The notes under the pieces are model-generated. The model saw only the letters and a program-made list of their open reading frames with translations. It ran no database searches and was not told the origin of the DNA. 59,310 bases of DNA, from the IMG/VR virus record IMGVR_UViG_3300048834_000244, positions 1 through 59,310 of that record. One strand, written 5' to 3'. The translations under genes and the position numbers were made by a program. The DNA comes from a virus. Shown here one piece after another: positions 1 through 59,310 of the stretch (position 1 is the first letter of the stretch; every line of letters starts with the position of its first letter).

Positions 1-285
1 GATGGTGAGGGTGGTTTTGTCGGTGGCATCTATCGCATGGCGCGAGAGATCGAAAGCCTACGCGCGTCCTCCGCCGCGAAAGACGCAGAGATAGCAGCCC
101 TCAAGAAGGAAGCGGCTGATGTCGTGAGGCCGTTTGCGAAGGCAGGCGAGCTATTCCCCGAACCGCAGTTCGACTTCGAGCAATGCATCTACAATCCTGC
201 GGCCGGCCCGGAATACGCGCTTGGCAGTAGCCACCTCCGAGCTGCCCGTTCCTTCCTCGACAAGTGGGAGGGGCGAGATGGTTGA
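1..285 (+). CDS. Coiled-coil early protein, 5' end cut off
   Basis: The frame is open from base 1, so the N-terminus is missing. The visible part has a charged, coiled-coil-like segment (AREIESLRASSAAKDAEIAA) followed by an AARSFLDKWEG ending. It is a second version of the gene at 58124-58963: bases 1-147 match 58225-58371 with one mismatch at base 78, then the two diverge and rejoin at the SFLDKWEG part. No function is recognised. The stop overlaps the next start by eight bases, which suggests coupled translation. Confidence 0.7.
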   Translation, partial: DGEGGFVGGIYRMAREIESLRASSAAKDAEIAALKKEAADVVRPFAKAGELFPEPQFDFEQCIYNPAAGPEYALGSSHLRAARSFLDKWEGRDG

Positions 286-790
286 GCCGCGCCTCATCGA
301 AGCAAACTGGAACACGAGTGGCGTCCAGTATCACGAATACACCTGCGTCGAGTGCGGGAAGTTGGGTCGAAACACCTATTTCGAGCCGCACCGCACCGAC
401 ATGCTCAACCGACGCCTTTGCTGGCACTGCAACTATTGGCGCGACTTCGAGGCTCGTCTTGAGCGTGACCATACCAGCATGACGATAATTGACGGTCACG
501 TATACGGACCCGGCAGCCGAACTAGCGGCTCATTTCGAGGCATGGCGGGACGGCGGTTCGACATCGAGTACATCCCGCCGTCAATCTATGCTGGCAAGCG
601 CGTGACCACCTTCGATCTGTGGTCCGGCTCGACACTCCCGGAGTATCTTCAGAAGCGGTTCCCGGACACAGCAAAATTCCTTGGCGGTGCAGAGAAGTGT
701 TCGCTCGACGGGGAGATAACGACTTGCTGGAACTCATCAGACCATCGAACGGAGCCGTATCCGCTCCCTCGCACGATAGGAATCAAGTGA
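278..790 (+). CDS. Hypothetical protein with two CxxC pairs
   Basis: 170-residue protein that starts inside the end of the preceding gene and ends in a TGATG overlap with the next. Two cysteine pairs (CVECGK and CWHCNYW, about 35 residues apart) suggest a small zinc-binding knuckle. The rest is unfamiliar. The gene is absent from the parallel right-end version of this locus, so it looks like a variable cassette in the early operon. Confidence 0.7.
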   Translation: MVEPRLIEANWNTSGVQYHEYTCVECGKLGRNTYFEPHRTDMLNRRLCWHCNYWRDFEARLERDHTSMTIIDGHVYGPGSRTSGSFRGMAGRRFDIEYIPPSIYAGKRVTTFDLWSGSTLPEYLQKRFPDTAKFLGGAEKCSLDGEITTCWNSSDHRTEPYPLPRTIGIK

Positions 791-1137
791 TGATCGAGGT
801 CCGTCGCGTCGATAGCCTATTCGACGGCAGGCACCGCGCCGGGCGCTATCGCGTCTCGCCGCCTTCGGACCATCCGGCATCGGGTATGACCGTCACAGTT
901 GCCATGGGCGGAGGCGCGTACTCCACCCTCATCAACCCGCAGTCTTTCGAGAACGGCGGGCCAGAATGGGTCATGCGCTACGGCAACCCGGAATCCATCA
1001 GGTACACGGTCGCAGGTCTGCTTGAGGCTTACGACTACCTGCTTTCGGACAACATCAACATGAAAGAGGCAACGAGACGGCTACGCATTCTGCGTGCTGG
1101 CCGGCGCGATCTGGTGAAAGGAGGAGGGAATGGTTGA
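790..1137 (+). CDS. Hypothetical early-region protein
   Basis: 115 residues; the ATG overlaps the preceding stop (TGATG). The C-terminal half is helical and basic (KEATRRLRILRAGRRDLVKG). No family is recognised. Like its upstream neighbour it has no counterpart in the right-end version of the locus. Its 3' end contains GGAGGG, which is also a suitable ribosome binding site for the overlapping gene at 1130. Confidence 0.65.
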   Translation: MIEVRRVDSLFDGRHRAGRYRVSPPSDHPASGMTVTVAMGGGAYSTLINPQSFENGGPEWVMRYGNPESIRYTVAGLLEAYDYLLSDNINMKEATRRLRILRAGRRDLVKGGGNG

Positions 1138-1582
1138 GCGGTTTGGGCTATTCGAGAACATCGGAGGCATTGGTCTGCGACTTGAGAAAGACGGAGAATG
1201 GGTCCGCCACTCCGACCACCTAGCCATTATCGGACGGATTGAAGACGATCGCACTGACGAGCATGTCCAATGGATGGCCGAACTCTCCGCCCTCAAGAAG
1301 CAGGTAGAGGAACTGACGGCGGAGCGGGATGATGCGCGCCAATATGCCGTTGAGGCCCGCCTTCGAGAGAACCAGGCAGAAGACAGACGCATCTCGGAAT
1401 CCTTTGCCCGCACCAAGGCTGAAGCCGAAGCAGCAGCGCTGCGGAAGGCGCTGGAGTTCTACGCGGATGTCAGCAAATACCCCGCGCCTCTGACGGGCGG
1501 CATGGGCGACCTATGGGCAGACTGCGGCCGGATCGCCCGATCCGCCCTTGCCTCTACCAGGGAGACGAGCGATGCAGGTTGA
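1130..1582 (+). CDS. Coiled-coil early protein (paralogue of 58124-58963)
   Basis: 150 residues with a central coiled coil ([20 protein letters not shown]) and a tail [11 protein letters not shown]. The coiled-coil segment, the [11 protein letters not shown] segment and the tail all recur in the protein at 58124-58963, while the parts between them differ. The pair therefore looks assembled from exchanged modules. The N-terminus ([15 protein letters not shown]) is unique to this copy. Function unknown. Confidence 0.7.
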
Positions 1583-2054
1583 TGAGAAGGCGCTGAAGTA
1601 CGCCTATGACGCCGGCCGCGATTACGTCATGGACATGGACGACCGCACGAAGCAAATGATCCGCGTCTGCGTTCGCGCCTATCTCTCAGCCCTTGGCGAG
1701 CAGAAGCCGATCGCCTTCGTCTCGAAGCGAGTCATTGATGCTCTCGACGTCAACGGCACCGAGATAGTCGACGCTATGCTTTTCCCAAGAGGCACGCTTC
1801 GGCCAACCGAGGCACGCCCCCTCTACGCCTCTCCTCTCCCCGTCATGCCTATCACGGATGAGGACGTGGAGCGCCGGTTCAAACTCGACGACCGTGTCAC
1901 GAAAACCAAGGGCTCGTCATGGACAGGCCGTGTCGTCGGCTTCTACAGCACGACGCTGACGCCCATCGGCTACGCCGTCGAAAGCGAGAATGAACCCGGC
2001 AGCGTCCAGATTTATCCGGAAGCCGCGCTCGACGCCGCTGGCGGGAGGGGATAA
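1572..2054 (+). CDS. Early protein with C-terminal type II (R67/DfrB-like) dihydrofolate reductase domain
   Basis: 160 residues. Residues 1-95 are an unfamiliar phage early-protein region ending [11 protein letters not shown]. Residues 102-153 match the R67/DfrB SH3-barrel family closely: [33 protein letters not shown] and [12 protein letters not shown]. By alignment from memory, the R67 active-site residues K32, W38 and V66-Q67-I68-Y69 are kept as K111, W117 and V145-Q146-I147-Y148. R67 works as a homotetramer that reduces dihydrofolate with NADPH and is insensitive to trimethoprim. Whether this longer protein assembles and reduces folate is inference; the domain assignment is strong. The ATG overlaps the preceding gene. 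A second version starts at 58953. Confidence 0.8.
1815..1941 (+). repeat. 127-bp exact repeat, left copy
   Basis: Identical to 59184-59310, which is the extreme end of the window; the bases just before (A at 1814, C at 59183) differ. A perfect match of exactly 127 bases ending at the sequence end is what a de Bruijn assembler with k=127 leaves when a circular or terminally redundant genome closes onto a branch. It lies within the DfrB-type gene. Confidence 0.9.
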
Positions 2055-2233: not shown

Positions 2234-2481
2234 CGCCGGCTGAGATCATAGCGCGGGCAACGTCTGAGGCATTCGAGCGCGTCGCGCAATGGCACGACAA
2301 GAACGCGCGCCTGTGTCTTGAAGTGTCGAGAGACGATCCGCGCCTCAATGCCGATGACAGGCGTAGGGCTTTCGAGGCTCACCGTCATCATGCAGCGAGC
2401 GCGGCGGCCATCCGGAACAAACTCTCGGACGAACGCCGGGCCGCCATCCGAGCCCTCGCCGATGGAGGCGGAAGTGAGTAG
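2230..2481 (+). CDS. Helical hypothetical protein
   Basis: 83 residues, helical and charged (PAEIIARATSEAFERVAQW, SAAAIRNKLSDERRAAIRAL). The start at 2230 follows a good AGGAG and overlaps the previous stop. Small helical proteins of this kind are common in early operons of rhizobial phages. No function can be assigned. Confidence 0.65.
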   Translation: MTPAEIIARATSEAFERVAQWHDKNARLCLEVSRDDPRLNADDRRRAFEAHRHHAASAAAIRNKLSDERRAAIRALADGGGSE

Positions 2482-2659
2482 GGCGCTGCCGCTCAAGCAG
2501 GGGCAAATCATCGCACTCTGCAAGGGCGCGAAGAAGGCCGGGCACGTCCCGGTCGTGGAAATCGACGGGGTTCGCGTGCTGCTTGTCCCCGCTAATCACG
2601 ATATCCTCAAGTCGGCCGAAATCAAACGAGTTGACGAGAAGGGTAAGGGCTACCTCTGA
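2474..2659 (+). CDS. Small basic protein upstream of the integrase
   Basis: 61 residues from a GTG at 2474, chosen because GGAGG lies five bases upstream; an in-frame ATG at 2462 has no comparable site. It is basic with a beta-rich centre (VPVVEIDGVRVLLVP). Its place directly before int, with overlapping stop and start, is where excisionases are often found, but no excisionase motif is visible, so that role is only a possibility. Confidence 0.55.
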   Translation: MSRALPLKQGQIIALCKGAKKAGHVPVVEIDGVRVLLVPANHDILKSAEIKRVDEKGKGYL

Positions 2660-3747
2660 TGGAGGACATGCCGCGCCCACGGAAGCCCTATATCCAGAAG
2701 GAGGTCACTCGCCACGGCAAGATCGTGTGGTACTTCCGGCGAGGCAAGGAGCCGCGTGTCCGCCTGCCCGGAGCGTTTGGGTCGAAGGACTTCAATGAGG
2801 CCTACGCTGCCGCATTTGCTGGTTTAGAGCCAAAGCCACGTGTTTTCGCGCCGCAGCCGTCTCTCCGCTGGCTGGTTGACCGATACTACGAAAGCCCGAG
2901 ATTCAACGCGCTCCGCCCGAATACCCAGCGGAACTACAGGCTGGAGCTGGAGCGCGTCTGCAAAACCGGCGGCTCGCTCAATTTTGCGAAGATCGATACT
3001 GACGATATCCGCGCCGGCATGATGCGGCGCGAGAATCGCCCTCATATGGTCGCCGAATACGTCAAGGCCATGCGCGCCCTGTTCCGTTTCGCCAAAGACA
3101 GCAAATGGATCGGCGCGAATCCGACCGAAGACATCACGTCGGTGCACGTGAAAACGGCGGGCTACCACACATGGACCGTCGAGGAAGTCGAGAGATATCA
3201 GGCGAAGCATCCTGTCGGCACGCAAGCCCGGCTTGCTCTCGACATCATGCTCTATACGGGTCTGAGACGTGGCGATGCGATCACTCTCGGCCGCCAGCAT
3301 GTTCGCGGCGGAACAATCAGCATTCGGGCCGGGAAGAACGGTGCGGAAATCGTGCTCCCCATCCTCCCGCCCCTTGCCGCATCCATTGAGGCCACGAAGA
3401 CAGGCGACATGGTGTTCCTGGTGAACACGCGAGGGCGCCCGTGGAAGAATATCAGCTTCGGTTACTGGTTCGCCGCACGGTGCGAGGAAGCCAAGGTTCC
3501 CGGACGCGCGCATGGGTTGCGGAAGGCCGGCGCAACCATCGCGGCGAACAACGGGGCGACGCCATTTGAGCTGACCGCGATGTACGGATGGTCCTCAACG
3601 AAGGTCGCCGAAATCTACACTCAGAAGGCCGACAAAGTGCGTCTGGCGGAACGCGCCGCGAACAAGCTATACCCGCACCCGGCCAAAGGTGCGGGGAATG
3701 CACCGCCGAAACCATTGAAAATAAAGGCCTCTCGGCAGCGGCATTAA
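2659..3747 (+). CDS. int: Tyrosine-family site-specific integrase
   Basis: Recombines phage and host attachment sites for lysogenic integration. 362 residues: a basic N-terminal arm-binding part, a SAM-like core-binding domain (about 65-160) and a catalytic domain. Visible catalytic residues are R203 (GLRRGDAITL), K226, H285 and R288 (AHGLRKAG), W311 in place of the second histidine, and nucleophile Y320 (VAEIYTQ). It is the last gene of the rightward operon and is followed by a terminator. The start overlaps the preceding stop; a second ATG at 2668 is possible. An attP site is expected nearby but no tRNA-like core was recognised. Confidence 0.93.
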   Translation: MEDMPRPRKPYIQKEVTRHGKIVWYFRRGKEPRVRLPGAFGSKDFNEAYAAAFAGLEPKPRVFAPQPSLRWLVDRYYESPRFNALRPNTQRNYRLELERVCKTGGSLNFAKIDTDDIRAGMMRRENRPHMVAEYVKAMRALFRFAKDSKWIGANPTEDITSVHVKTAGYHTWTVEEVERYQAKHPVGTQARLALDIMLYTGLRRGDAITLGRQHVRGGTISIRAGKNGAEIVLPILPPLAASIEATKTGDMVFLVNTRGRPWKNISFGYWFAARCEEAKVPGRAHGLRKAGATIAANNGATPFELTAMYGWSSTKVAEIYTQKADKVRLAERAANKLYPHPAKGAGNAPPKPLKIKASRQRH

Positions 3748-6093: not shown

Positions 6094-6161
6094 TAGCGAA
6101 CCCGCCGAGCGTTCCAGCGCTGCGACGGGTTCTAACCAAGCCAACCTGTAAGGAGGTCGAA

Positions 6162-6866
6162 ATGGCTACTTCCCGAATATGCTCGATTCCCGGTTGCAGC
6201 AAGGCTGCTAGGTCACGCGGATGGTGTCGTGCCCATTATGAGCGCTGGCGACGAAATGGTTCCCCTACAGCGCGGGGACGTGGCAACTCAAAAAGAAACA
6301 CTGCGGTACGCTTGCTTTGCGAGACGTGCGGCAGTGGCTACCATCCGTGGGCTGGTCGCGAGACCACATCGAGAACTTGCAGCCGCCAATGCAACGGACA
6401 GATATCCAAACAGGGAAACTCCTATCAATCATCTGACTTCGACCGGCTTATCGACCAGTCTGATGGTTGTTGGATTTGGAAGGGGCCATTACGCGAGGAT
6501 GGTTACGGCGAATTCTTTATCGCGGGCCGGCGCTTTCGCGCGCATCGATATTCTTTCGAGCGGCAGTATGGCCCTATACCGTTAGGGCTATTTGTCTGCC
6601 ATCGCTGCGACAATCCCTCCTGCGTGAATCCGGATCACCTGTTTGCCGGAACGCAACGCGAGAATATGCAGGATATGGCCGCGAAGGGGAGGCACGGCGG
6701 GCCAGATTTGCGGGGCGAAGCCCACCCAATGGCTCGGATCACCAGGGAAGTTGCCCAAGCCATCCGCGTTGACTTGAGACCTGCAAAGGATGTCTCCGCT
6801 CAGTACGGCGTCAGCAAATCCCTAGTTTGGGCGATCAGAAGTGGCAGGTTGTGGAACGGCACCTAG
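6162..6866 (+). CDS. HNH homing-type endonuclease 1
   Basis: 234 residues. The N-terminal zinc knuckle (CSIPGCSKAARSRGWCRAHY) is a plant-GATA-like motif shared with three other HNH proteins here. A second cysteine cluster (CETCGSGYHP...CSRQC) follows, then the HNH_3 nuclease core (GCWIWKGPLREDGYGEF, VCHRCDNPSCVNPDHLF) and a C-terminal helix-turn-helix (ARITREVAQAIRVDL). Such freestanding nucleases cut and home into related phage genomes. TAAGGAGG lies upstream of the ATG. The gene opposes the late operon, and its last four bases overlap the end of the outer spanin gene. Confidence 0.9.
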   Translation: MATSRICSIPGCSKAARSRGWCRAHYERWRRNGSPTARGRGNSKRNTAVRLLCETCGSGYHPWAGRETTSRTCSRQCNGQISKQGNSYQSSDFDRLIDQSDGCWIWKGPLREDGYGEFFIAGRRFRAHRYSFERQYGPIPLGLFVCHRCDNPSCVNPDHLFAGTQRENMQDMAAKGRHGGPDLRGEAHPMARITREVAQAIRVDLRPAKDVSAQYGVSKSLVWAIRSGRLWNGT

Positions 6867-7568: not shown

Positions 7569-7670
7569 TTTGATTTAATGTGTTGATTCAGCTACAAAAA
7601 GCGAACGCGCCGGATGCTGGACACATCGCGGCGCGCTCTAACCAGCGCAACCTGTAAGGAGGTCGAGATG
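7569..7670 (+). repeat. HNH-cassette 5' repeat, copy 1
   Basis: About 102 bases that are roughly 90% identical to 8499-8600 at an offset of 930. It contains the promoter, an inverted repeat (CGCGCC / GGCGCG), TCTAACCA and the TAAGGAGG ribosome binding site, and ends at the ATG of HNH gene 2. A shorter, more diverged version precedes HNH gene 1 (6088-6164). Confidence 0.85.
7570..7598 (+). promoter_or_regulatory. Sigma-70-like promoter of HNH gene 2
   Basis: TTGATT, 17 bases, TACAAA. It points away from the leftward late operon, so the HNH gene can be transcribed independently, for example in a lysogen. Confidence 0.6.
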
Positions 7671-8273
7671 GCTGCCGGATACAAACCATGCTCAATAACT
7701 GGCTGCAACGGGAACGCGAACTATTCCGCGAGTGGGAAGCGCGGCTGGTGCAACATGCATTACCGCCGCTGGCAGCGCTATGGTGACACCTCATTCCGCG
7801 TCCGTCCCCCAAACGGAGAAGTGAGGCTATACTTCAAAACAGTCGTAATTCCCTACTCGGGCGAAACGTGCCTGATATGGCCCTTCGCAAGGAACGAAGC
7901 AGGGTACGGGGTGATAAATCTGCCCGGGGCCTCATCGTCTCTCGTTTCCCGCATTGTCTGCGAGGCAACCCATGGGGAAGCCCCGTCAGATACCCACGAG
8001 GCCGCGCATTCATGCGGCAAGGGTCATGAAGGCTGCGTCAGTCCGAGGCACCTTTCATGGAAAACACCGTCGCAGAACAGCGCTGACAAGCACACCCACG
8101 GAACAACCTCAAAAGGAACTCTGTCTCCTCTTTCCAAGCTTGACGAAGCATCTGTTATTGCGATCCGGCGAATGGCTGGGTCAATGACGCAAGTCGAAAT
8201 AGCGGCTCATTTTGGGGTGGCGCGCACGACAGTCAGCAGCATACTGCACGGTCGAAATTGGTCTTGGCTATGA
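7668..8273 (+). CDS. HNH homing-type endonuclease 2
   Basis: 201 residues from the ATG at 7668, after TAAGGAGG. N-terminal knuckle CSITGCNGNANYSASGKRGW with CNMHYRRW, HNH core (CLIWPFARNEAGYGVINL, AHSCGKGHEGCVSPRHLSWK) and a C-terminal helix-turn-helix (TQVEIAAHFGVARTTVSSIL). It shares its upstream region and domain order with HNH gene 3. It lies tail-to-tail with the membrane protein at 8282-8485, leaving eight bases between the stops. Confidence 0.88.
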   Translation: MAAGYKPCSITGCNGNANYSASGKRGWCNMHYRRWQRYGDTSFRVRPPNGEVRLYFKTVVIPYSGETCLIWPFARNEAGYGVINLPGASSSLVSRIVCEATHGEAPSDTHEAAHSCGKGHEGCVSPRHLSWKTPSQNSADKHTHGTTSKGTLSPLSKLDEASVIAIRRMAGSMTQVEIAAHFGVARTTVSSILHGRNWSWL

Positions 8274-8498: not shown

Positions 8499-8600
8499 TT
8501 TGATTTAATCAGTTGATTCTGCTATAAAAAACGAACGCGCCGGATGCTGGACACATCGCGGCGCGCTCTAACCAAGCCAACCTGTAAGGAGGTCGAAATG
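8499..8600 (+). repeat. HNH-cassette 5' repeat, copy 2
   Basis: Counterpart of 7569-7670, ending at the ATG of HNH gene 3. The inverted repeat CGCGCC / GGCGCG and the translation signals are kept, while the few differences fall mostly in the promoter spacer. Confidence 0.85.
8500..8528 (+). promoter_or_regulatory. Sigma-70-like promoter of HNH gene 3
   Basis: TTGATT, 17 bases, TATAAA: the best match of the three HNH promoters to the bacterial consensus. Confidence 0.65.
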
Positions 8601-9308
8601 GCTGAGAATCCGATATGCGCAATTCCAGACTGCGGCAAGCCCGTCAAATGCGCGGGCATGTGCTCCATGCACTATGCGCGGAAATGGCGGCACGGCGACG
8701 CGAGTATCGCCAGAGCGAGGCCGCGCGGCATCTGTTCGATGGATGGGTGCTTAAATCTTCATTCCGCTAGAGGACTTTGCAAAACGCACGCCACGCGCCT
8801 CAAAAAGCATGGCGATCCATCTGTGCGTCTTACAAACAAAAACAAGGGGAAGAGGATAAACTTCGTACTAGAAGTTGCGTCGCCTTTCACGGGGGACAAT
8901 TGCCTGCATTGGCCGTTCACGCCCGGCAAACGCGGGTGGGCTCCAAGCATATCCATTCACGGTAAACGACAGGTTGTGACAAGATACCTCTGCGAAGTCC
9001 GTCATGGGCCTGCTCCAACAACAGCGCACCAAGCGGCGCATGTGTGCGGTCAAGGGCATCGCGGATGCGTCAACCCCTCCCATTTACAGTGGAAAACCCC
9101 GAGCGAGAACCAACTGGACAAAATTGAACACAACACTCACATACGCGGCACGAGATCCCCTACAGCCAAGATTGACGAAGCGATGGTTATTCGTGTCAGA
9201 TCGCTTCTTGGAACGATGAATTGCAGAGAAATTGCCCGGCGATTGGGAATCAGCTGGAACATAGTCTATGCGATTAAGGATCGTAGGACATGGGGCTGGC
9301 TAGAATAG
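8598..9308 (+). CDS. HNH homing-type endonuclease 3
   Basis: 236 residues from the ATG at 8598. It has two tandem zinc knuckles (CAIPDCGKPVKCAGMCSMHY and CSMDGCLNLHSARGLCKTHA), then an HNH core (CLHWPFTPGKRGWAPSISIH, AHVCGQGHRGCVNPSHLQWK) and a helix-turn-helix (NCREIARRLGISWNIVYAI). The gene overlaps the end of the endolysin gene by nine bases in convergent orientation. The extra knuckle is the main difference from HNH 2. Confidence 0.88.
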   Translation: MAENPICAIPDCGKPVKCAGMCSMHYARKWRHGDASIARARPRGICSMDGCLNLHSARGLCKTHATRLKKHGDPSVRLTNKNKGKRINFVLEVASPFTGDNCLHWPFTPGKRGWAPSISIHGKRQVVTRYLCEVRHGPAPTTAHQAAHVCGQGHRGCVNPSHLQWKTPSENQLDKIEHNTHIRGTRSPTAKIDEAMVIRVRSLLGTMNCREIARRLGISWNIVYAIKDRRTWGWLE

Positions 9309-44225: not shown

Positions 44226-44533
44226 CAGTAGCCCCGATCTGGAACGTAGAGGCAAATGGAACGGATGGCGTCGATCACTCCGCCGGGTGTGCATTGATGA
44301 AAGAACTCGTCCTTGGAGAGCTTTATGCGCACGTCGCTGTACGGGATGATCTCGCCCGTCAGCTTGATGCGATACCCAACCGGGCCTTCCTCCACTTCGC
44401 TGCCGGCGAGTTGCCTACAGTCCTGATTGGAGCAGCACTCCCATCCATAGCGCCAGCCTGTCGGCGCTTCGTGGGCCATCACAGGCAGCACAACCGCCGC
44501 CGAAAGGGCTAAGGAGGTGAGCGCGCGGATCAT
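44225..44533 (-). CDS. Exported cysteine-rich protein
   Basis: 102 residues. A signal peptide (MIRALTSLALSAAVVLPVMA) is followed by HEAPTGWRYGWECCSNQDCR and a second region with two more cysteines. This HEAPTGWxYxxECCSxxDC family is frequent in rhizobia and their phages; function unknown. It is unusual in the middle of a replication operon. Overlaps the methyltransferase stop by four bases. Confidence 0.7.
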   Translation of the reverse strand: MIRALTSLALSAAVVLPVMAHEAPTGWRYGWECCSNQDCRQLAGSEVEEGPVGYRIKLTGEIIPYSDVRIKLSKDEFFHQCTPGGVIDAIRSICLYVPDRGY

Positions 44534-45312
44534 GCGGCACTCCCAAAGATGTCTGCTTGTTTGGCTTCGGGATTGCGCGACGCCTCAACGAACATGTCGG
44601 GCTGGGCATAGGCCTTTTCGATGCGCTTGCAGGCGATGTCGAAATAGCCCTCGTCGATCTCGATGCCGATGAATGAACAACCGGCGCGTACGGCAGCAAC
44701 GCCGGTCGTGCCGGAGCCCATGTAAGGATCAAGAACGACGCCGCTGCAGACGCCAGCCTGCGCGAGCGTCCAATTCATGACCATCTCGGGCTTTTGTGTC
44801 GGATGAAGTCTTTGTTGGCCCGCCGTCACCTCGTGACGCGCACCGACTCCGACGCAGAGACCATCCCACAGAAGACGTAAAATACGCAGTGGCCGTGGGT
44901 CAGCGTCATTGATCCATGCTGCTTCGCCGTCGCCCTGATCCCGGACTTTTCCGGTCGGCACCTTGTCCCAAACCAGCCATGACCCTGCCGGTAACCGGTC
45001 AGCAAATTTGTGAGCTCCCCACATTACGATGCGCGGAGCCACCTGCAGCCATGGCTTAGGGTCAAAGGGCTTATCGTCGCCATGCACGGGCCGATGCACT
45101 TTAGGGCGCACGACCAGCGTCTTTCCGTTTCGCTGGACAACGGCATTGTTGCGTTTTCCGCCCGAGTGGAACGTATTGACCTTGTAGTTCTGCCCATACG
45201 GCGGGTCCGTCACCACCGCATCGACCTCGCCGAGCAGCGGCAGCACCTGAAGGCAATCGCCGAGATACAATTCGCAGGAGCCGATCACTTCCTTTCTACT
45301 CCACGCCGTCAT
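44530..45312 (-). CDS. DNA methyltransferase, beta class
   Basis: 260 residues from the ATG at 45312. Motif IV DPPYGQNY (residues 36-43) near the N-terminus and motif I DPYMGSGTTGVAAVRAG near the C-terminus, with HPTQKPEMV between, give the beta-class order (N6-adenine or N4-cytosine). It may protect phage DNA from restriction or regulate expression. The ATG overlaps the stop of the GIY-YIG gene. Confidence 0.85.
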   Translation of the reverse strand: MTAWSRKEVIGSCELYLGDCLQVLPLLGEVDAVVTDPPYGQNYKVNTFHSGGKRNNAVVQRNGKTLVVRPKVHRPVHGDDKPFDPKPWLQVAPRIVMWGAHKFADRLPAGSWLVWDKVPTGKVRDQGDGEAAWINDADPRPLRILRLLWDGLCVGVGARHEVTAGQQRLHPTQKPEMVMNWTLAQAGVCSGVVLDPYMGSGTTGVAAVRAGCSFIGIEIDEGYFDIACKRIEKAYAQPDMFVEASRNPEAKQADIFGSAA

Positions 45313-46034
45313 GATGCGACCCCTGACAGCGGACGCTTGTGCAAACGTTCGCAAGTACGGCAGACACGAGAGCCCGTCTTGTTCACCCGCAAATTGTCCC
45401 CGGAAAGGGGGTGCCCTCTAAGGCAATGCGTCAATTCTTTCCGGCGCTTAGCCGCTGCGACTATGCCTCGCTCTCTGACGTGCTCGGGAACGGGTCTTGA
45501 CTTTCCGCGGATCGATGCCTGGTAACAGGCGCGAGAGCAGAACCTGTTGTGTCCCTTGATGATATCGCGGCGCTTTCGCCAGAATTGATCTCCGCACTGT
45601 TGGCAAGAGAAGGTGTCCCCCGAGCGGATCGCCTCTGCCACTCTCCGACGACGCTCCTCCGTCCACTCTGTGCCGGAGCCCCCCAGACCTCCATCGGTGA
45701 CGTTCAGCAGATCATCGTATTGAGAGACCCAGTAACGTTCGCGCTCAGCCCTAGTCGCAGGAATATCTGCGCACTTCTCCAGCACGATTACGCTGAAACC
45801 ACTGCCCCTTTCGGAGATCCAGCGATGCACCGGAAGCGGGCTTCCCGCACGCGCGTCTAGGATATGGCCGCGCATTCGAAGCCGAAGGGACTGACTAGTG
45901 CTCCCAATATAAACCGGAGAGCCGCCATCAAAGGGCGCAATGGCGTATATGACGGCAGTACGCTCATCCCCGACGAACCTGATGCGGACGCCGGAGCAGT
46001 CGCCGATGGTGACGTCTTTGCGGATCGGGCTCAT
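45309..46034 (-). CDS. GIY-YIG endonuclease with C-terminal zinc modules
   Basis: 241 residues. GIY-YIG core: VIYAIAPFDGGSPVYIGSTS (motif as IYA/YIG), SLRLRMRGH with the conserved arginine, and a catalytic glutamate region (RAERERYWVSQYDDLLNVTD). The C-terminal half has zinc-type cysteine clusters (CQQCGDQFW...FCSRACYQ) and HCLRGHPLSGDNLRVNK...CRTCERLHKRP, the latter like the HNH-associated CxxGH...C..C module. A homing-type nuclease inserted before the methyltransferase gene, to which it is translationally coupled. Confidence 0.85.
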   Translation of the reverse strand: MSPIRKDVTIGDCSGVRIRFVGDERTAVIYAIAPFDGGSPVYIGSTSQSLRLRMRGHILDARAGSPLPVHRWISERGSGFSVIVLEKCADIPATRAERERYWVSQYDDLLNVTDGGLGGSGTEWTEERRRRVAEAIRSGDTFSCQQCGDQFWRKRRDIIKGHNRFCSRACYQASIRGKSRPVPEHVRERGIVAAAKRRKELTHCLRGHPLSGDNLRVNKTGSRVCRTCERLHKRPLSGVAS

Positions 46035-49117: not shown

Positions 49118-49170
49118 GTAATTTAAGTCACGCTGAATTTTCAGTCAAGCTTGATTTTTCAGTGGAGCTT
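49118..49170 (-). promoter_or_regulatory. Left promoter/operator module (PL/OL-like)
   Basis: On the minus strand TTGACT (49143-49148), 17 bases, TAAATT (49120-49125). Boxes of the type TCAGC.TGACT lie in the spacer and over the -35, with a palindrome TCAAGCTTGA; a weaker third box (CTCCACTGAA) is further upstream. The plus strand between here and 49208 must also hold the repressor promoter, for which no strong match is visible. Confidence 0.75.
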
Positions 49171-49207
49171 TATCGTATCGGCAGTCTGTTTGCCCGATGA
49201 TCCGTGC

Positions 49208-49624
49208 ATGGAAGACGAGACGTTAAAACTGGCGACCCCGACCTCTGTGCGCGAACGCCGTAAGGCGCGCGGCTGGACTCAGCCGGAACTAGCCGAGAAG
49301 GCCGGCATCAGCACGACGGCTGTGCATAATTTGGAAGCAGGCAAGAACGGCTTCACCGACAAGACGCTCGCCTCGTTGGCAACGGCTCTCGGCTGCCGTC
49401 CCGCCGATCTGCTTCTTCCGATGAATGAAAAACCGCAAGAAATTACCAGCGAACCGGAAATCCTGTCCTTCCTCGCCAGGATCAAGGGGTTCACAAAAAC
49501 GGACATAGATGCCGCATTCGGCGTGATAATGTTGGCGCTGCGGGCTAAGCAGGGCGGATCACAATCAGCCGAAAGTCGTGATCAATCTGGGCAGACCACT
49601 CCCCGCCGTGTATCAGTGCCATAG
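49208..49624 (+). CDS. Lysogenic repressor (XRE/CI-like)
   Basis: 138 residues from the ATG at 49208. N-terminal XRE helix-turn-helix (TSVRERRKARGWTQPELAEK, AGISTTAVHNLEAGKNGFTD, KTLASLATALGCRPADLLLP). The short C-terminus lacks an S24/LexA-type self-cleavage domain, so induction must work differently from lambda CI. It lies between two matching operator modules and probably keeps both early operons off. The final 80 bases overlap an opposite-strand gene. Confidence 0.85.
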   Translation: MEDETLKLATPTSVRERRKARGWTQPELAEKAGISTTAVHNLEAGKNGFTDKTLASLATALGCRPADLLLPMNEKPQEITSEPEILSFLARIKGFTKTDIDAAFGVIMLALRAKQGGSQSAESRDQSGQTTPRRVSVP

Positions 49625-56197: not shown

Positions 56198-56414
56198 GCT
56201 GACAGAGGCGGAGATCACGGGTCGGGCAGCGCAAATCATCACGATTGCGATGGGTACCCGAACCACGGGGCGCGGACGCGGAACCGTCCGTATCGGAAAC
56301 GCCGACGATGACCCACTCGCCTACTGGCTCGGCGTTGAGGCCATCCTCGAACTTGTCGAAGATACCTACGAAGCCGGCCGCGCCGCGCTCAACCAGACAG
56401 ACGGAGGGGCGTGA
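56175..56414 (+). CDS. Small helical early protein
   Basis: 79 residues from the ATG at 56175. Helical (KLTEAEITGRAAQIITIAMG; LAYWLGVEAILELVEDTYEA). It ends one base before the start of the radical SAM gene, so both are likely co-translated. No family recognised. Confidence 0.6.
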   Translation: MEAAVANKLTEAEITGRAAQIITIAMGTRTTGRGRGTVRIGNADDDPLAYWLGVEAILELVEDTYEAGRAALNQTDGGA

Positions 56415-56415
56415 G

Positions 56416-57381
56416 ATGTTGTTCCGCGACGTGAAAATCATCCCGAGCGCTGAAGGAAATGTCAGCAAATACGTCTTTACGGCCGAAACGGGCGTCGCCG
56501 AAGCCGTCCTATACCGGTATCCCGATTATCAGACGCGCACTGTCATATGTTGCTCTACCATGAGCGGATGCCCTGTCGGATGCCGCTTCTGCGGCGCGGG
56601 CGACTACTTTGTCCGCTCTATGTCGGCCGAAGAAATCGTTGCGCAGGCAGACCGCTGCATCGCCGACACAGGCATTGACGCCGCCGAGATGAAGCGGCTC
56701 CAGATCATGTTCATGAGCATGGGTGAACCACTGTTGAACCCGAAGGGGATGCAGGGCGCGCTGCGGGAACTCTATGCGAAGTATCCGAACGCCGCGTTAC
56801 TCATCTCCACCATCGGCCCGGACATCGACTACGATTGGGTGCGCGACATAAGCGTCGAGATACCGACAGTCGGTCTTCAGTTTTCGGTCCACAAGTCGAG
56901 CGACGCTGAACGTGATGTTCTGATCCCGTTCAAGAAGAAGTTGCCGCTGAATTTCATCGCCTATGAGGGCGAACGGTGGTTTCGCGAGACGGGGAGAAAG
57001 CCGTTCTTCAACTACTGCGCGGGCGACGACAACTCGTTGCCGCACGACGCGGATCGGCTGCGGGAACGCTTCGATCCGACCGTCTGGAATGCGACCGTAA
57101 GCGTCATCTGCGAGCGTAACGAGGGTATGCCGGCGAAGAACGATCACCAGATCGAACTAGCGGCCAACTTCGCCTCACTACTTGTCGAACGCGGCTACGA
57201 CGTTCGCGTGTTCGATCCCGCTGGCCAGGACGATATAGGCGGCGGTTGCGGCCAGCTTTGGTTCGTCCAGCAGTGGATGCGTGATCACCCCGAACTAGCG
57301 CGACCGAGCATCGGCCACGGACTGCCCTCCGTTCATACGCCCGCCGGCCGCTCCACCCTCGCAGGAGGTAGCGATGCGTAG
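56416..57381 (+). CDS. Radical SAM enzyme, RlmN/Cfr-like
   Basis: 321 residues. The 4Fe-4S motif is GCPVGCRFCG (C52, C56, C59). A cysteine before it (TVICCSTMSG, C45/C46) and C278 in DIGGGCGQLW sit where RlmN and Cfr have the two cysteines that carry out methyl transfer. FMSMGEPLLN and LQFSVHKSSDAERDVLIPFK are also typical of that family, which methylates A2503 of 23S rRNA (and, for RlmN, tRNA). The usual N-terminal accessory domain is shortened to about 40 residues. The phage target is unknown. The ATG follows the preceding stop directly. Confidence 0.82.
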   Translation: MLFRDVKIIPSAEGNVSKYVFTAETGVAEAVLYRYPDYQTRTVICCSTMSGCPVGCRFCGAGDYFVRSMSAEEIVAQADRCIADTGIDAAEMKRLQIMFMSMGEPLLNPKGMQGALRELYAKYPNAALLISTIGPDIDYDWVRDISVEIPTVGLQFSVHKSSDAERDVLIPFKKKLPLNFIAYEGERWFRETGRKPFFNYCAGDDNSLPHDADRLRERFDPTVWNATVSVICERNEGMPAKNDHQIELAANFASLLVERGYDVRVFDPAGQDDIGGGCGQLWFVQQWMRDHPELARPSIGHGLPSVHTPAGRSTLAGGSDA

Positions 57382-57798: not shown

Positions 57799-58127
57799 CC
57801 ATCTCCCCCGAAGCATTGGAGAAGGCGCGGGCGATAGCGCAGTCCATTTGCAACAACACCCGAACGCTCATCGGCGAAAATGATATCATCCTCATCGCCG
57901 CCGCCCTACAGGCAGAACGTGACGCGAACATCGCTCTTCACGCCGCCCTCGAATCGCTGGTGGCGCGCATTGCCGAGCTTGAGGCGGGGTTGAAAGATAC
58001 AGCGGAAGCGCTCCGTAGTCGCCTTACAGCGGACGAACTGAACGCCCCGCACCATAAACCCTACGAGCACCCGCTGTCCGCTTATGACCGCGCCGCCCGT
58101 CTCTTGAGCAAGGATCGCCAGCCATGA
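57795..58127 (+). CDS. Coiled-coil early protein
   Basis: 110 residues. A helix with LESLVARIAELEAGLKDTAE forms a coiled coil; the C-terminus ends YDRAARLLSKDRQP. Coupled to the next gene by ATGA. Same general type as the two following genes. Confidence 0.6.
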   Translation: MTISPEALEKARAIAQSICNNTRTLIGENDIILIAAALQAERDANIALHAALESLVARIAELEAGLKDTAEALRSRLTADELNAPHHKPYEHPLSAYDRAARLLSKDRQP

Positions 58128-58963
58128 CCACCGCACAGACAGAAGCGCGGGCGATTGGCGACCCGTATATGCGAATTGTTGATTTTTTCGACCGGGATGA
58201 AACGGCAGGAAGTTTCCTGCGTGAAGATGGTGAGGGTGGTTTTGTCGGTGGCATCTATCGCATGGCGCGAGAGATCGAAAGCCTACGCGCGTCCTCCGCC
58301 GCCAAAGACGCAGAGATAGCAGCCCTCAAGAAGGAAGCGGCTGATGTCGTGAGGCCGTTTGCAAAAATCGCTGACGGTGAACCAGACAACGCCGTTTTCC
58401 ATACAGGCCACAAAGTATTTAAGGCCGCCCGTTCCTTCCTCGACAAGTGGGAGGGCGAGATGTCTGACCTTATCGAAAAACTGCGACTCGCCTGCGATGA
58501 TCCTATGTGGGCCGATCATGTCGAAATGCCGAAGAAGCTTTTGCGGCATGCTGTTGATTATCTCGATGCCCTCAAGAAGCAGGTAGAGGAACTGACGGCG
58601 GAGATGGATGCGGCAACAATTTCCGGATGGAAGGCTGCCATCGACTGCGTGTCATATGCAGCAGCCAATACCTACGGGCCGAGAGTTGATCCTGCCGCCG
58701 TAGCTAAGGCGCGCGATGATCTTGTGCAGGAATTGCTTACGGCTTCTCCTGCCGATTATCTCGATTGCTGTTGGAAAGACGCGCAGGATGCAATCCGGGC
58801 CGAAGCCGAAGCAGCAGCGCTGCGGAAGGCGCTGATAGAGGCGCGCGACGTCGTTGACGCCGTTACCGGACATAATCAACCCGACCGCCCGTGGTCTCGG
58901 CAAGTGCGAGACCGCATAGACGCCGCCCTTGCCTCTACCAAGGAGACGAGCGATGCAGGTTGA
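58124..58963 (+). CDS. Mosaic coiled-coil early protein (right-end version)
   Basis: 279 residues. It combines a segment shared with the truncated gene at 1-285, and two coiled-coil blocks plus the tail shared with the gene at 1130-1582 ([35 protein letters not shown]). In the left version the shared blocks lie in two genes separated by two extra genes. Function unknown; the layout shows exchange by short homologous patches. Confidence 0.7.
   Translation: MTTAQTEARAIGDPYMRIVDFFDRDETAGSFLREDGEGGFVGGIYRMAREIESLRASSAAKDAEIAALKKEAADVVRPFAKIADGEPDNAVFHTGHKVFKAARSFLDKWEGEMSDLIEKLRLACDDPMWADHVEMPKKLLRHAVDYLDALKKQVEELTAEMDAATISGWKAAIDCVSYAAANTYGPRVDPAAVAKARDDLVQELLTASPADYLDCCWKDAQDAIRAEAEAAALRKALIEARDVVDAVTGHNQPDRPWSRQVRDRIDAALASTKETSDAG
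58225..58371 (+). repeat. Repeat of the window start
   Basis: Matches bases 1-147 with one mismatch (base 78 G, 58302 C). The first 77 bases are identical. Marks the left boundary of the duplicated, mosaic locus. Confidence 0.85.
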
Positions 58964-59310
58964 TGAGAAGGCGCTGGCGGCTGCGGTAGATGCAGCAGAA
59001 GCGCACCACGAAAAGCCTCTGCGTGAGTGGGAAGTGACAGCGATCCGCGCCGCCATCGCCGCCTATCTCGCCGCCCTTGGCGAGCGGGAGCCGGTGGTGT
59101 GGCAACGCCTGCATCCCGTTGCAGGCTGGCAGAATGTAGACGAAGCCGACATAGAGCATTATCGCAGCTACGGGCAAGAAATCCGCCCCCTCTACGCCTC
59201 TCCTCTCCCCGTCATGCCTATCACGGATGAGGACGTGGAGCGCCGGTTCAAACTCGACGACCGTGTCACGAAAACCAAGGGCTCGTCATGGACAGGCCGT
59301 GTCGTCGGCT
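58953..59310 (+). CDS. DfrB-domain early protein, second version, 3' end cut off
   Basis: Starts [20 protein letters not shown] at 58953, overlapping the preceding gene as in the left copy. The first eight residues are identical to the gene at 1572; residues 9-80 differ, and from [11 protein letters not shown] on it is identical. The window ends after TGRVVG, within the R67-type domain. Continuing at base 1942 would restore the complete domain. Confidence 0.75.
   Translation, partial: MQVDEKALAAAVDAAEAHHEKPLREWEVTAIRAAIAAYLAALGEREPVVWQRLHPVAGWQNVDEADIEHYRSYGQEIRPLYASPLPVMPITDEDVERRFKLDDRVTKTKGSSWTGRVVG
59184..59310 (+). repeat. 127-bp exact repeat, right copy
   Basis: Identical to 1815-1941; see that entry. 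It ends the window and closes the genome onto base 1942. Confidence 0.9.

What the first reader, a model, noticed from the sequence alone, without database searches (positions are those of the whole stretch)
1572..2054. Phage early gene carrying an R67/DfrB-type dihydrofolate reductase domain
Residues 102-153 keep nearly all signature positions of the type II, trimethoprim-insensitive reductase, including the K32, W38 and V66-Q67-I68-Y69 equivalents, but fused to about 95 extra N-terminal residues. The origin of the plasmid-borne DfrB genes is unclear, and a phage early operon is a plausible reservoir or source. The domain might also serve a non-enzymatic SH3-like role.
Basis: partly seen in the sequence, partly recalled or inferred. 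Interest (0 to 1): 0.85.

Follow-up and report, generated by a model that had tools for sequence, protein, structure and literature searches.

The report
Phage gene with R67-like reductase domain
An integrase-side gene of an uncultivated, probably temperate phage ends in a small domain closely related to the plasmid trimethoprim-resistance enzyme R67/DfrB; such phage proteins were already known, and this survey shows that the domain is one exchangeable building block in many phages.

Summary
The 160-aa ORF 1572-2054(+) carries a true R67/DfrB domain at residues 102-154: Pfam DHFR_2, 77.5 bits, E 7e-22. AlphaFold2 and Foldseek match R67 at 0.8-0.9 A. K32, W38, Y46 and V66-Q67-I68-Y69 are kept; W45 is F and H62 is E.

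It is not new in kind. Phage and bacterial R67-domain fusions (DfrB-H3 to H6) were published in 2023, and three of those four gave trimethoprim resistance in E. coli. The window core is 71-74% identical to two of the active ones.

What is added here: (1) 131 non-redundant relatives, 59 stand-alone and the rest fused to changing modules, including Lar-type restriction alleviation and MazG-like pyrophosphatase. (2) The gene sits upstream of a tyrosine integrase, a recurrent slot; five phages with related integrases lack the domain nearby. (3) The contig is a lasso with two alleles: the first half of the gene is replaced by a diverged homologous module while the R67 half is identical. (4) Integron-type DfrB forms one cluster whose nearest neighbours are phage proteins, but not this window's.

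Reductase competence is likely. Whether dihydrofolate reduction is the phage's use stays open: no thymidylate synthase or FolA was found in this record.

The parts
1572..2054 (+). Gene for the 160-aa R67-domain protein (allele A, as assembled)
   Evidence: ATG with GGGAG upstream; overlaps the upstream ORF by 11 nt (translational coupling likely, inferred).
1875..2033 (+). R67/DfrB (Pfam DHFR_2) SH3-like domain, residues 102-154
   Evidence: Pfam 77.5 bits; PDB 1vie/6ny0 E about 1e-16; AlphaFold2 pLDDT 93-97 over residues 101-150; Foldseek 2gqv E 2.7e-7, rmsd 0.9 A.
1572..1814 (+). Variable N-terminal module of allele A (residues 1-81): helical part plus a 'P-x-A-F ... PLYASP' part
   Evidence: Differs from allele B between MQVDEKAL and RPLYASP yet is homologous to it (local alignment z = 10.3 against shuffles). 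Helices 5-20 and 24-41 modelled with pLDDT about 66-80; residues 65-88 mostly below 50.
1815..1941 (+). 127-nt stretch repeated exactly at the end of the contig (59184-59310); assembly overlap inside the gene
   Evidence: exact suffix overlap of 127 nt, read as a k = 127 assembly overlap.
58953..59310 (+). 5' part of allele B of the same gene, with another N-terminal module, running into the R67 domain and cut by the contig end
   Evidence: joined to 1942-2054 it gives one open frame with the same R67 domain.
1130..1582 (+). Upstream ORF (150 aa) with a coiled-coil-like stretch, no family
   Evidence: allele B has a related ORF at 58124-58963.
2462..2659 (+). Small ORF next to the integrase, kept upstream of related integrases (ends ...DEKGKGYL); start codon chosen by eye
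   Evidence: Similar C-termini in L147-L151.
2659..3747 (+). Tyrosine integrase
   Evidence: PF00589 7.6e-14; phrog_1 2.9e-43.

Best explanation
The gene is an accessory gene on the integrase side of a probably temperate phage, encoding a two-part protein. Its C-terminal part is a genuine R67/DfrB-type SH3-like domain that most likely self-assembles, as in R67 and the assayed DfrB-H proteins, into a homotetramer with one central pore lined by K111 (K32) and V145-Q146-I147-Y148. That pore should bind NADPH and dihydrofolate and reduce dihydrofolate slowly, insensitive to trimethoprim. The N-terminal part is an exchangeable module of the phage's mosaic gene repertoire and is carried as four copies on the outside of the tetramer. 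In the phage the conserved part of the job is done by the pore: reduction of dihydrofolate, or binding/reduction of a similar anionic ligand. The changing partner modules adapt or target it. Shown here: homology, fold, pore-residue conservation, modularity, genomic slot. Inferred: tetramer, catalysis, and the use to the phage.
For: Family match far above cut-off and the R67 fold at 0.8-0.9 A rmsd with pLDDT 93-97. The core is 36/51 identical to DfrB-H5 of Methylobacterium (L125, 365 aa as published) and 39/53 identical to the Vibrio phage 1.030.O protein (probably DfrB-H4). Both published homologues gave trimethoprim resistance, and H5 was shown tetrameric and active in lysate (PMC9835603). 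H5 and the Vibrio protein also carry E at position 62 and Y at position 45, so the window's two departures from R67 sit where active homologues also depart. K32 and Q67 are 100% conserved in 82 viral sequences; T48, T51, G54, E58 and S59 are 96-100% conserved and lie outside the search patterns. In the pattern-free tblastn set the pore motif holds apart from rare changes. dN/dS of the core in viral pairs has median 0.34. 59 of 131 non-redundant members are stand-alone domains, so the domain has a function of its own. Modularity: two alleles in this contig; fusions with Lar (L101 E 6.8e-7 over cut-off; L023 2.4e-5, below cut-off) and MazG-like pyrophosphatase in both orders (L064 2e-55; L099 1e-6). 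Slot: 22 of 24 viral loci with a tyrosine integrase within 4.5 kb have it downstream on the same strand.
Against: No thymidylate synthase (ThyA, ThyX) or FolA DHFR in this record; among 54 records with the domain, ThyX 0, FolA 0, ThyA 7, so a link to dTMP supply is not general. DfrB-H3 of phage PS-1, whose N-terminal module resembles allele B's (z = 7.7), gave no resistance, blamed by its authors on lack of soluble expression. Tetramer and activity were not tested for this protein. VQIY conservation is partly built into the search patterns.
Confidence: 0.66

Rival explanations
1. The domain is mainly a tetramerisation and scaffold module that displays interchangeable N-terminal modules, comparable in genome position to the mosaic exo-xis genes of lambda such as ea22; any reductase activity is adventitious.
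For: Partner modules change freely, even between two alleles of this phage. The gene lies between a variable gene cluster and the integrase, a position like the lambda exo-xis region (PMC10834534 abstract). The published authors call the activity of DfrB-H proteins adventitious (PMC9835603).
Against: 45% of the non-redundant members have no sizeable partner to display. K32, which lines the pore mouth, is invariant in 82 viral sequences.
Confidence: 0.22
2. A true auxiliary dihydrofolate reductase that raises tetrahydrofolate/dTMP supply during phage replication, like T4 frd but by non-homologous replacement of FolA.
For: FolA is absent from all 54 records. Five large phages carry the R67 domain together with a full-length ThyA match: phiM9, ZX86, RHph_I1_6, RHph_N38 and the record of L073. 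MazG-like fusions point to nucleotide pools.
Against: 47 of 54 records, this window included, have no ThyA. DfrB turnover (0.2-0.4 per second) is at least 100-fold below FolA (PMC9774602). In the smaller, integrase-bearing phages the gene does not lie among nucleotide-metabolism genes.
Confidence: 0.25
3. A non-catalytic small-molecule or nucleic-acid binder using the same pore, for example an anti-defence or host-takeover factor.
For: Fusion to Lar-type restriction alleviation modules; accessory, variable location.
Against: Only 2 of 66 fused proteins match Lar at E <= 0.001, so this may be module mixing without shared purpose; pore residues match those needed for DHF/NADPH.
Confidence: 0.2
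4. Assembly artefact: the gene is a chimera of two strains made at the 127-nt overlap.
For: The contig end repeats 1815-1941 exactly, inside the gene.
Against: Both paths give full open frames of the same length class with homologous N-terminal modules, and the R67 domain (1875-2033) continues uniquely to 2054 whichever path is right. Fused architectures are common in other records.
Confidence: 0.08

Closest known systems
DfrB-H3 to DfrB-H6 (Lemay-St-Denis et al. 2023, PMC9835603), R67 domains embedded in phage and bacterial proteins
   Same: R67 SH3-like domain with K32, W38 and VQIY kept; additional domains; near-phage contexts; W45 not conserved. Core identity 71% to DfrB-H5 (L125) and 74% to the Vibrio phage protein (L008, probably DfrB-H4).
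   Different: Different N-terminal module from H4-H6; the module is related to that of PS-1 (DfrB-H3), a shared partner not reported in the main text I read. This protein has not been assayed.
R67 DHFR / DfrB1-DfrB21 trimethoprim-resistance enzymes
   Same: Same domain and pore residues; about 62% identity over the core (59-62%).
   Different: DfrB are 78 aa with a short disordered N-terminus, integron or Burkholderiales context, W45 and H62. This one is 160 aa, phage context, F and E at those positions, and below the NCBIfam DfrB cut-off.
PHROG 31682 (unknown function) and GenBank phage proteins named 'dihydrofolate reductase protein' (e.g. Rhizobium phages RHph_TM3_3_3, RHph_N3_2)
   Same: Same phage family, E 2.8e-23 (hits); integrase-side position in TM3_3_3 and N3_2.
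   Different: Other fused modules; the GenBank names rest on the domain only.
lambda Ea22 and the exo-xis region
   Same: Position between recombination genes and integrase; fast-changing proteins with modular build (PMC10834534, PMC7093339 abstracts).
   Different: No sequence relation to Ea22 was tested or claimed; resemblance in position only.

Membership tests
Pfam PF06442 DHFR_2 (R67 family, wide sense) | Profile match over the gathering score | tested here: met
   77.5 bits against 25, residues 102-154
Pfam PF06442 DHFR_2 (R67 family, wide sense) | SH3-like barrel superposable on R67 | tested here: met
   pLDDT 93-97; 2gqv/1vie at 0.8-0.9 A over 54-57 columns
Pfam PF06442 DHFR_2 (R67 family, wide sense) | K32, W38 and VQIY pore/interface residues | tested here: met
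   K111, W117, V145-Y148
DfrB trimethoprim-resistance enzymes (narrow sense) | Score above the NCBIfam NF000331 cut-off; 78-aa stand-alone protein | tested here: not met
   83.9 against 137 bits; 160 aa with a 101-residue extension
DfrB trimethoprim-resistance enzymes (narrow sense) | Integron, plasmid or Burkholderiales chromosomal context | tested here: not met
   Virus record with integrase, portal and terminases
DfrB / R67 as enzyme | Homotetramer with one central active-site pore | not testable with these tools
   Only single-chain prediction available
DfrB / R67 as enzyme | NADPH-dependent, trimethoprim-insensitive dihydrofolate reduction | not testable with these tools
   Known for homologues only (PMC9835603)
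DfrB-H class (R67 domain embedded in a larger protein) | R67 domain plus additional sequence of at least 40 aa | tested here: met
   101-residue N-terminal extension; 60 of 131 relatives have N-extensions of 40 aa or more
Temperate phage gene | Phage structural genes plus integrase and repressor-like HTH in the same record | tested here: met
   Portal, terminases, major head, integrase, HTH_3 at 49151-49624; lysogeny itself not shown

The most novel reading that the evidence does not exclude
R67/DfrB is at heart a phage domain. It belongs to an exchangeable set of phage accessory-gene modules, occurs alone or fused to anti-restriction and nucleotide-pool modules, and its pore is kept under selection in phages. 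The resistance genes descend from a stand-alone phage version, of which the phage protein in L060 (69 aa, 85% core identity to 78-aa DfrB) is the nearest neighbour found.
Probability: 0.33. Interest if true: 0.72.

Novelty: new member of a known kind. Interest (0 to 1): 0.45.

Why it matters
The native function and origin of the DfrB resistance enzymes is an open question: the 2023 paper found 12 distant homologues and named metagenomic data as the way forward, and the 2024 paper still asks what the original function is. The family-wide view gathered here makes that question testable. At least 277 places in IMG/VR encode the domain. It keeps its pore while its partners change, it has a preferred slot next to phage integrases, and it is fused to recognisable Lar and MazG-like modules. 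A resistance enzyme whose nearest found neighbours are phage proteins would be a clear case of a phage module entering the resistome, though direction is not shown here.

Tried and rejected
(1) Chance similarity: rejected (E 7e-22). (2) A second full gene copy at the contig end: the 59244-59309 match is the same 127-nt sequence as 1815-1941 and is read as an assembly overlap with two alleles, not as a proven paralogue; a tandem duplication cannot be excluded without reads. (3) Dihydrofolate pathway island: no ThyX or FolA in 54 records, ThyA in 7. (4) Proximity to DNA methyltransferases, noted for DfrB-H3 to H5 in the literature: in my set only a few loci have a detected methyltransferase within 4.5 kb (one seed cluster only, so incomplete), and the window's lies at 44530-45354, far from the gene. 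(5) Searches for the two N-terminal modules alone in IMG/VR found no relatives; the modules are too diverged for that tool. (6) The first tree had three misplaced rows (L009, L081, L091) because a weak second domain hit was taken as the core; rebuilt with the same conclusion. The same three rows were also misread in the residue table, which does not change the percentages quoted for K32 or Q67 materially. (7) One search was a script error, redone. (8) Relatives by kinship are not available for a virus record.

Full report
WHAT IS THERE. The ORF at 1572-2054(+) encodes 160 aa. It overlaps the end of the upstream ORF (1130-1582) by 11 nt and has a GGGAG motif in front of its ATG. Residues 102-154 match Pfam PF06442 DHFR_2 at 77.5 bits, E 7.1e-22, PHROG 31682 (unknown function) at 2.8e-23 and R67 chains of the PDB at about 1e-16. 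The NCBIfam model for DfrB resistance enzymes also matches, but at 83.9 bits against a cut-off of 137. K32, W38, Y46, T51, S59, S65 and V66-Q67-I68-Y69 are all kept; W45 is F and H62 is E. AlphaFold2 gives pLDDT 93-97 for the domain, with a medium-confidence helical region at residues 5-41. Foldseek's best seven hits are all R67 structures, with rmsd 0.8-0.9 A.

THE RECORD. The window is a virus record of IMG/VR with portal (SU10 type), terminases, major head protein, primase/helicase, muramidase, a C1-type HTH and a tyrosine integrase. The R67-domain gene lies about 0.6 kb upstream of the integrase on the same strand; the primase/helicase is on the other strand. So 'integrase-side accessory gene' is what the sequence shows, and 'early' is an inference.

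THE CONTIG IS A LASSO. The last 127 nt (59184-59310) equal 1815-1941 exactly, and 1-140 equals 58226-58365 with two mismatches. An exact 127-nt overlap is what an assembler with k = 127 leaves where two paths meet. The simplest reading is a circular or circularly permuted genome of about 57.4 or 58.2 kb with two alleles of the stretch upstream of, and into, this gene. Allele A is 1-1814 and allele B is 58226-59183. Both give a complete open frame. The first eight residues (MQVDEKAL) and everything from RPLYASP on are identical, while the roughly 70 residues between are diverged but homologous (z = 10.3 against shuffles). The R67 half is thus constant and the N-terminal half exchanged. A tandem duplication cannot be excluded without reads.

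RELATIVES. Scans with a core profile found 277 places in IMG/VR (80 kept) and 52 in 84,980 species genomes; tblastn found 25 phage records. After removing redundancy there are 131 proteins: 59 are little more than the domain (extensions under 40 aa on both sides), 60 have N-terminal extensions of 40 aa or more, and 27 have C-terminal ones (start codons were chosen by a simple rule, so lengths are approximate). The extensions form a shifting repertoire. They include restriction-alleviation Lar (L101 6.8e-7, over Pfam's cut-off; L023 2.4e-5, just below), MazG-like pyrophosphatase at the C-terminus (L064, phrog_5658 2e-55) and at the N-terminus (L099, phrog_229 1e-6), and a 'PVAW...PLYAP' stretch. 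A strict pattern for that stretch, written after seeing the sequences, occurs in 6 of 55 N-extensions against 0.025 expected in shuffles, and by eye also in L009 and L081. Allele B's module is related to the N-terminus of the PS-1 protein (DfrB-H3; z = 7.7) and of L098 (z = 5.9). The main text of the 2023 paper says the additional domains of its homologues share no similarity with each other; this partner module does recur.

PORE CONSERVATION. In 82 viral sequences K32 and Q67 are 100%, W38 98%, Y46 100%, T51 97%, V66 98%, I68 96%, Y69 97%. The search patterns contained GSVQIYP and WxG..VGxY, so those positions are partly biased. K32, T48, T51, G54, E58 and S59 are not. The unbiased phage tblastn set keeps the motif apart from single changes such as M66 in AsC4_1. 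H62, which makes R67 dissociate at low pH according to PMC9835603, is E in 75% of the viral sequences, as here. The proven homologue DfrB-H5 also has E62 and Y45. dN/dS for the core in viral pairs has median 0.34 (a rough NG86 estimate with short sequences).

GENOMIC SLOT. Among 81 viral loci, 24 have a tyrosine integrase within 4.5 kb, and 22 of those have it downstream on the same strand; among 29 non-canonical loci in bacterial genomes 8 do, 7 of them in that orientation, consistent with prophages. ERF and YqaJ-type recombination genes lie upstream in 9 and 8 loci (identified by eye from the seed proteins). Five phages with related integrases (51-76% identical) have other small ORFs in the slot and no R67 domain in the DNA examined. 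This resembles the lambda exo-xis region in position only. Of 54 records with the domain, none has FolA or ThyX, and 7 match ThyA, including phiM9, ZX86, the Schitoviridae and the record of L073.

TREE. On 53 columns most forks are unresolved. The 16 integron/Burkholderiales-type sequences (78-aa DfrB plus L126) are compatible with one clade (AU p 0.64), and their nearest neighbours are phage proteins, first L060 (85% core identity), then L041 and L081. A single viral clade is rejected (p 0.00014). The window sits elsewhere, with Rhizobiaceae and sphingomonad phages and prophages. Without a root this does not prove a phage origin.

WHAT IS KNOWN. Phage and bacterial proteins with embedded R67 domains were described and assayed in PMC9835603: H4, H5 and H6 gave trimethoprim resistance, H3 did not express, and H5 was tetrameric. 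DfrB2-like ORFs at 67% identity were listed in freshwater viral contigs in PMC7265639. Over 3,000 dfrB homologues in JGI metagenomes are reported in PMC9774602. PMC11662351 names Burkholderiales as the environmental hosts of dfrB and leaves the original function open. GenBank already names several phage relatives 'dihydrofolate reductase'. So this gene is a new member of a known kind.

MECHANISM AND ODDS. That the domain would form the R67 tetramer and reduce dihydrofolate is likely (about 0.65-0.75, from identity to active homologues). That this is what the phage uses it for is uncertain. Invariant K32/Q67 and the many stand-alone versions speak for a pore-based function; the lack of thymidylate synthase in most carriers, the slow chemistry and the promiscuous fusions speak against a simple metabolic role. 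I commit to a pore-based oxidoreductase or ligand-binding tetramer with exchangeable outer modules. The confidences of the rivals overlap with it, because the rivals about native use do not exclude a competent pore.

Noticed in passing
window 1-1941 and 58226-59310: Lasso-shaped contig: 127-nt exact end overlap and two alleles of the variable region; true genome length probably about 57.4 or 58.2 kb, circular or permuted.
   Followed up: partly
L060:4968-5174: 69-aa stand-alone R67-domain protein in a phage contig with a serine integrase about 2 kb downstream; 85% core identity to 78-aa DfrB, nearest phage neighbour of the resistance enzymes found here.
   Followed up: partly
L134, L135, L138-L143 (Bradyrhizobium, Ensifer, Sphingomonas, Novosphingobium, Mesorhizobium, a Hyphomicrobiales MAG): A distinct group of mostly 70-74-aa bacterial R67-domain proteins with the motif GR(A/S)SWRG(K/R)IVGWYRTD; only L140 had a tyrosine integrase detected within 4.5 kb. 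Looks like a bacterial branch with its own function.
   Followed up: no
L101:4761-5204, L023:2045-2725: R67 domain fused to Lar-type restriction alleviation module in Rhizobium and a viral contig.
   Followed up: partly
L064:4986-5594, L048:4180-4788, L099:4404-5192: R67 domain fused to MazG-like pyrophosphatase modules, at the C-terminus (L064, and by sequence similarity L048) and at the N-terminus (L099).
   Followed up: partly
L105 and L128 (same contig JALRHB010000011.1, Polynucleobacter MAG): Two different R67-domain genes on one 21-kb contig.
   Followed up: no
window 56245-57381 (+): Radical SAM protein with a cysteine motif CPVGCRFC, weakly similar to Fe-S-cluster redox families; RlmN-like by eye, in the same operon region.
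   Followed up: no
window 6122-6167, 7628-7673, 8558-8603: Three copies of a 46-nt repeat (CAACCTGTAAGGAGGTCGAAATGGCT...) that includes a ribosome-binding site and start codon, in front of HNH-type and other genes.
   Followed up: no
L015:9-140 (Aeromonas phage AsC4_1): Unannotated R67 domain, cut by the start of the linear record, with GSMQIYP instead of GSVQIYP.
   Followed up: no
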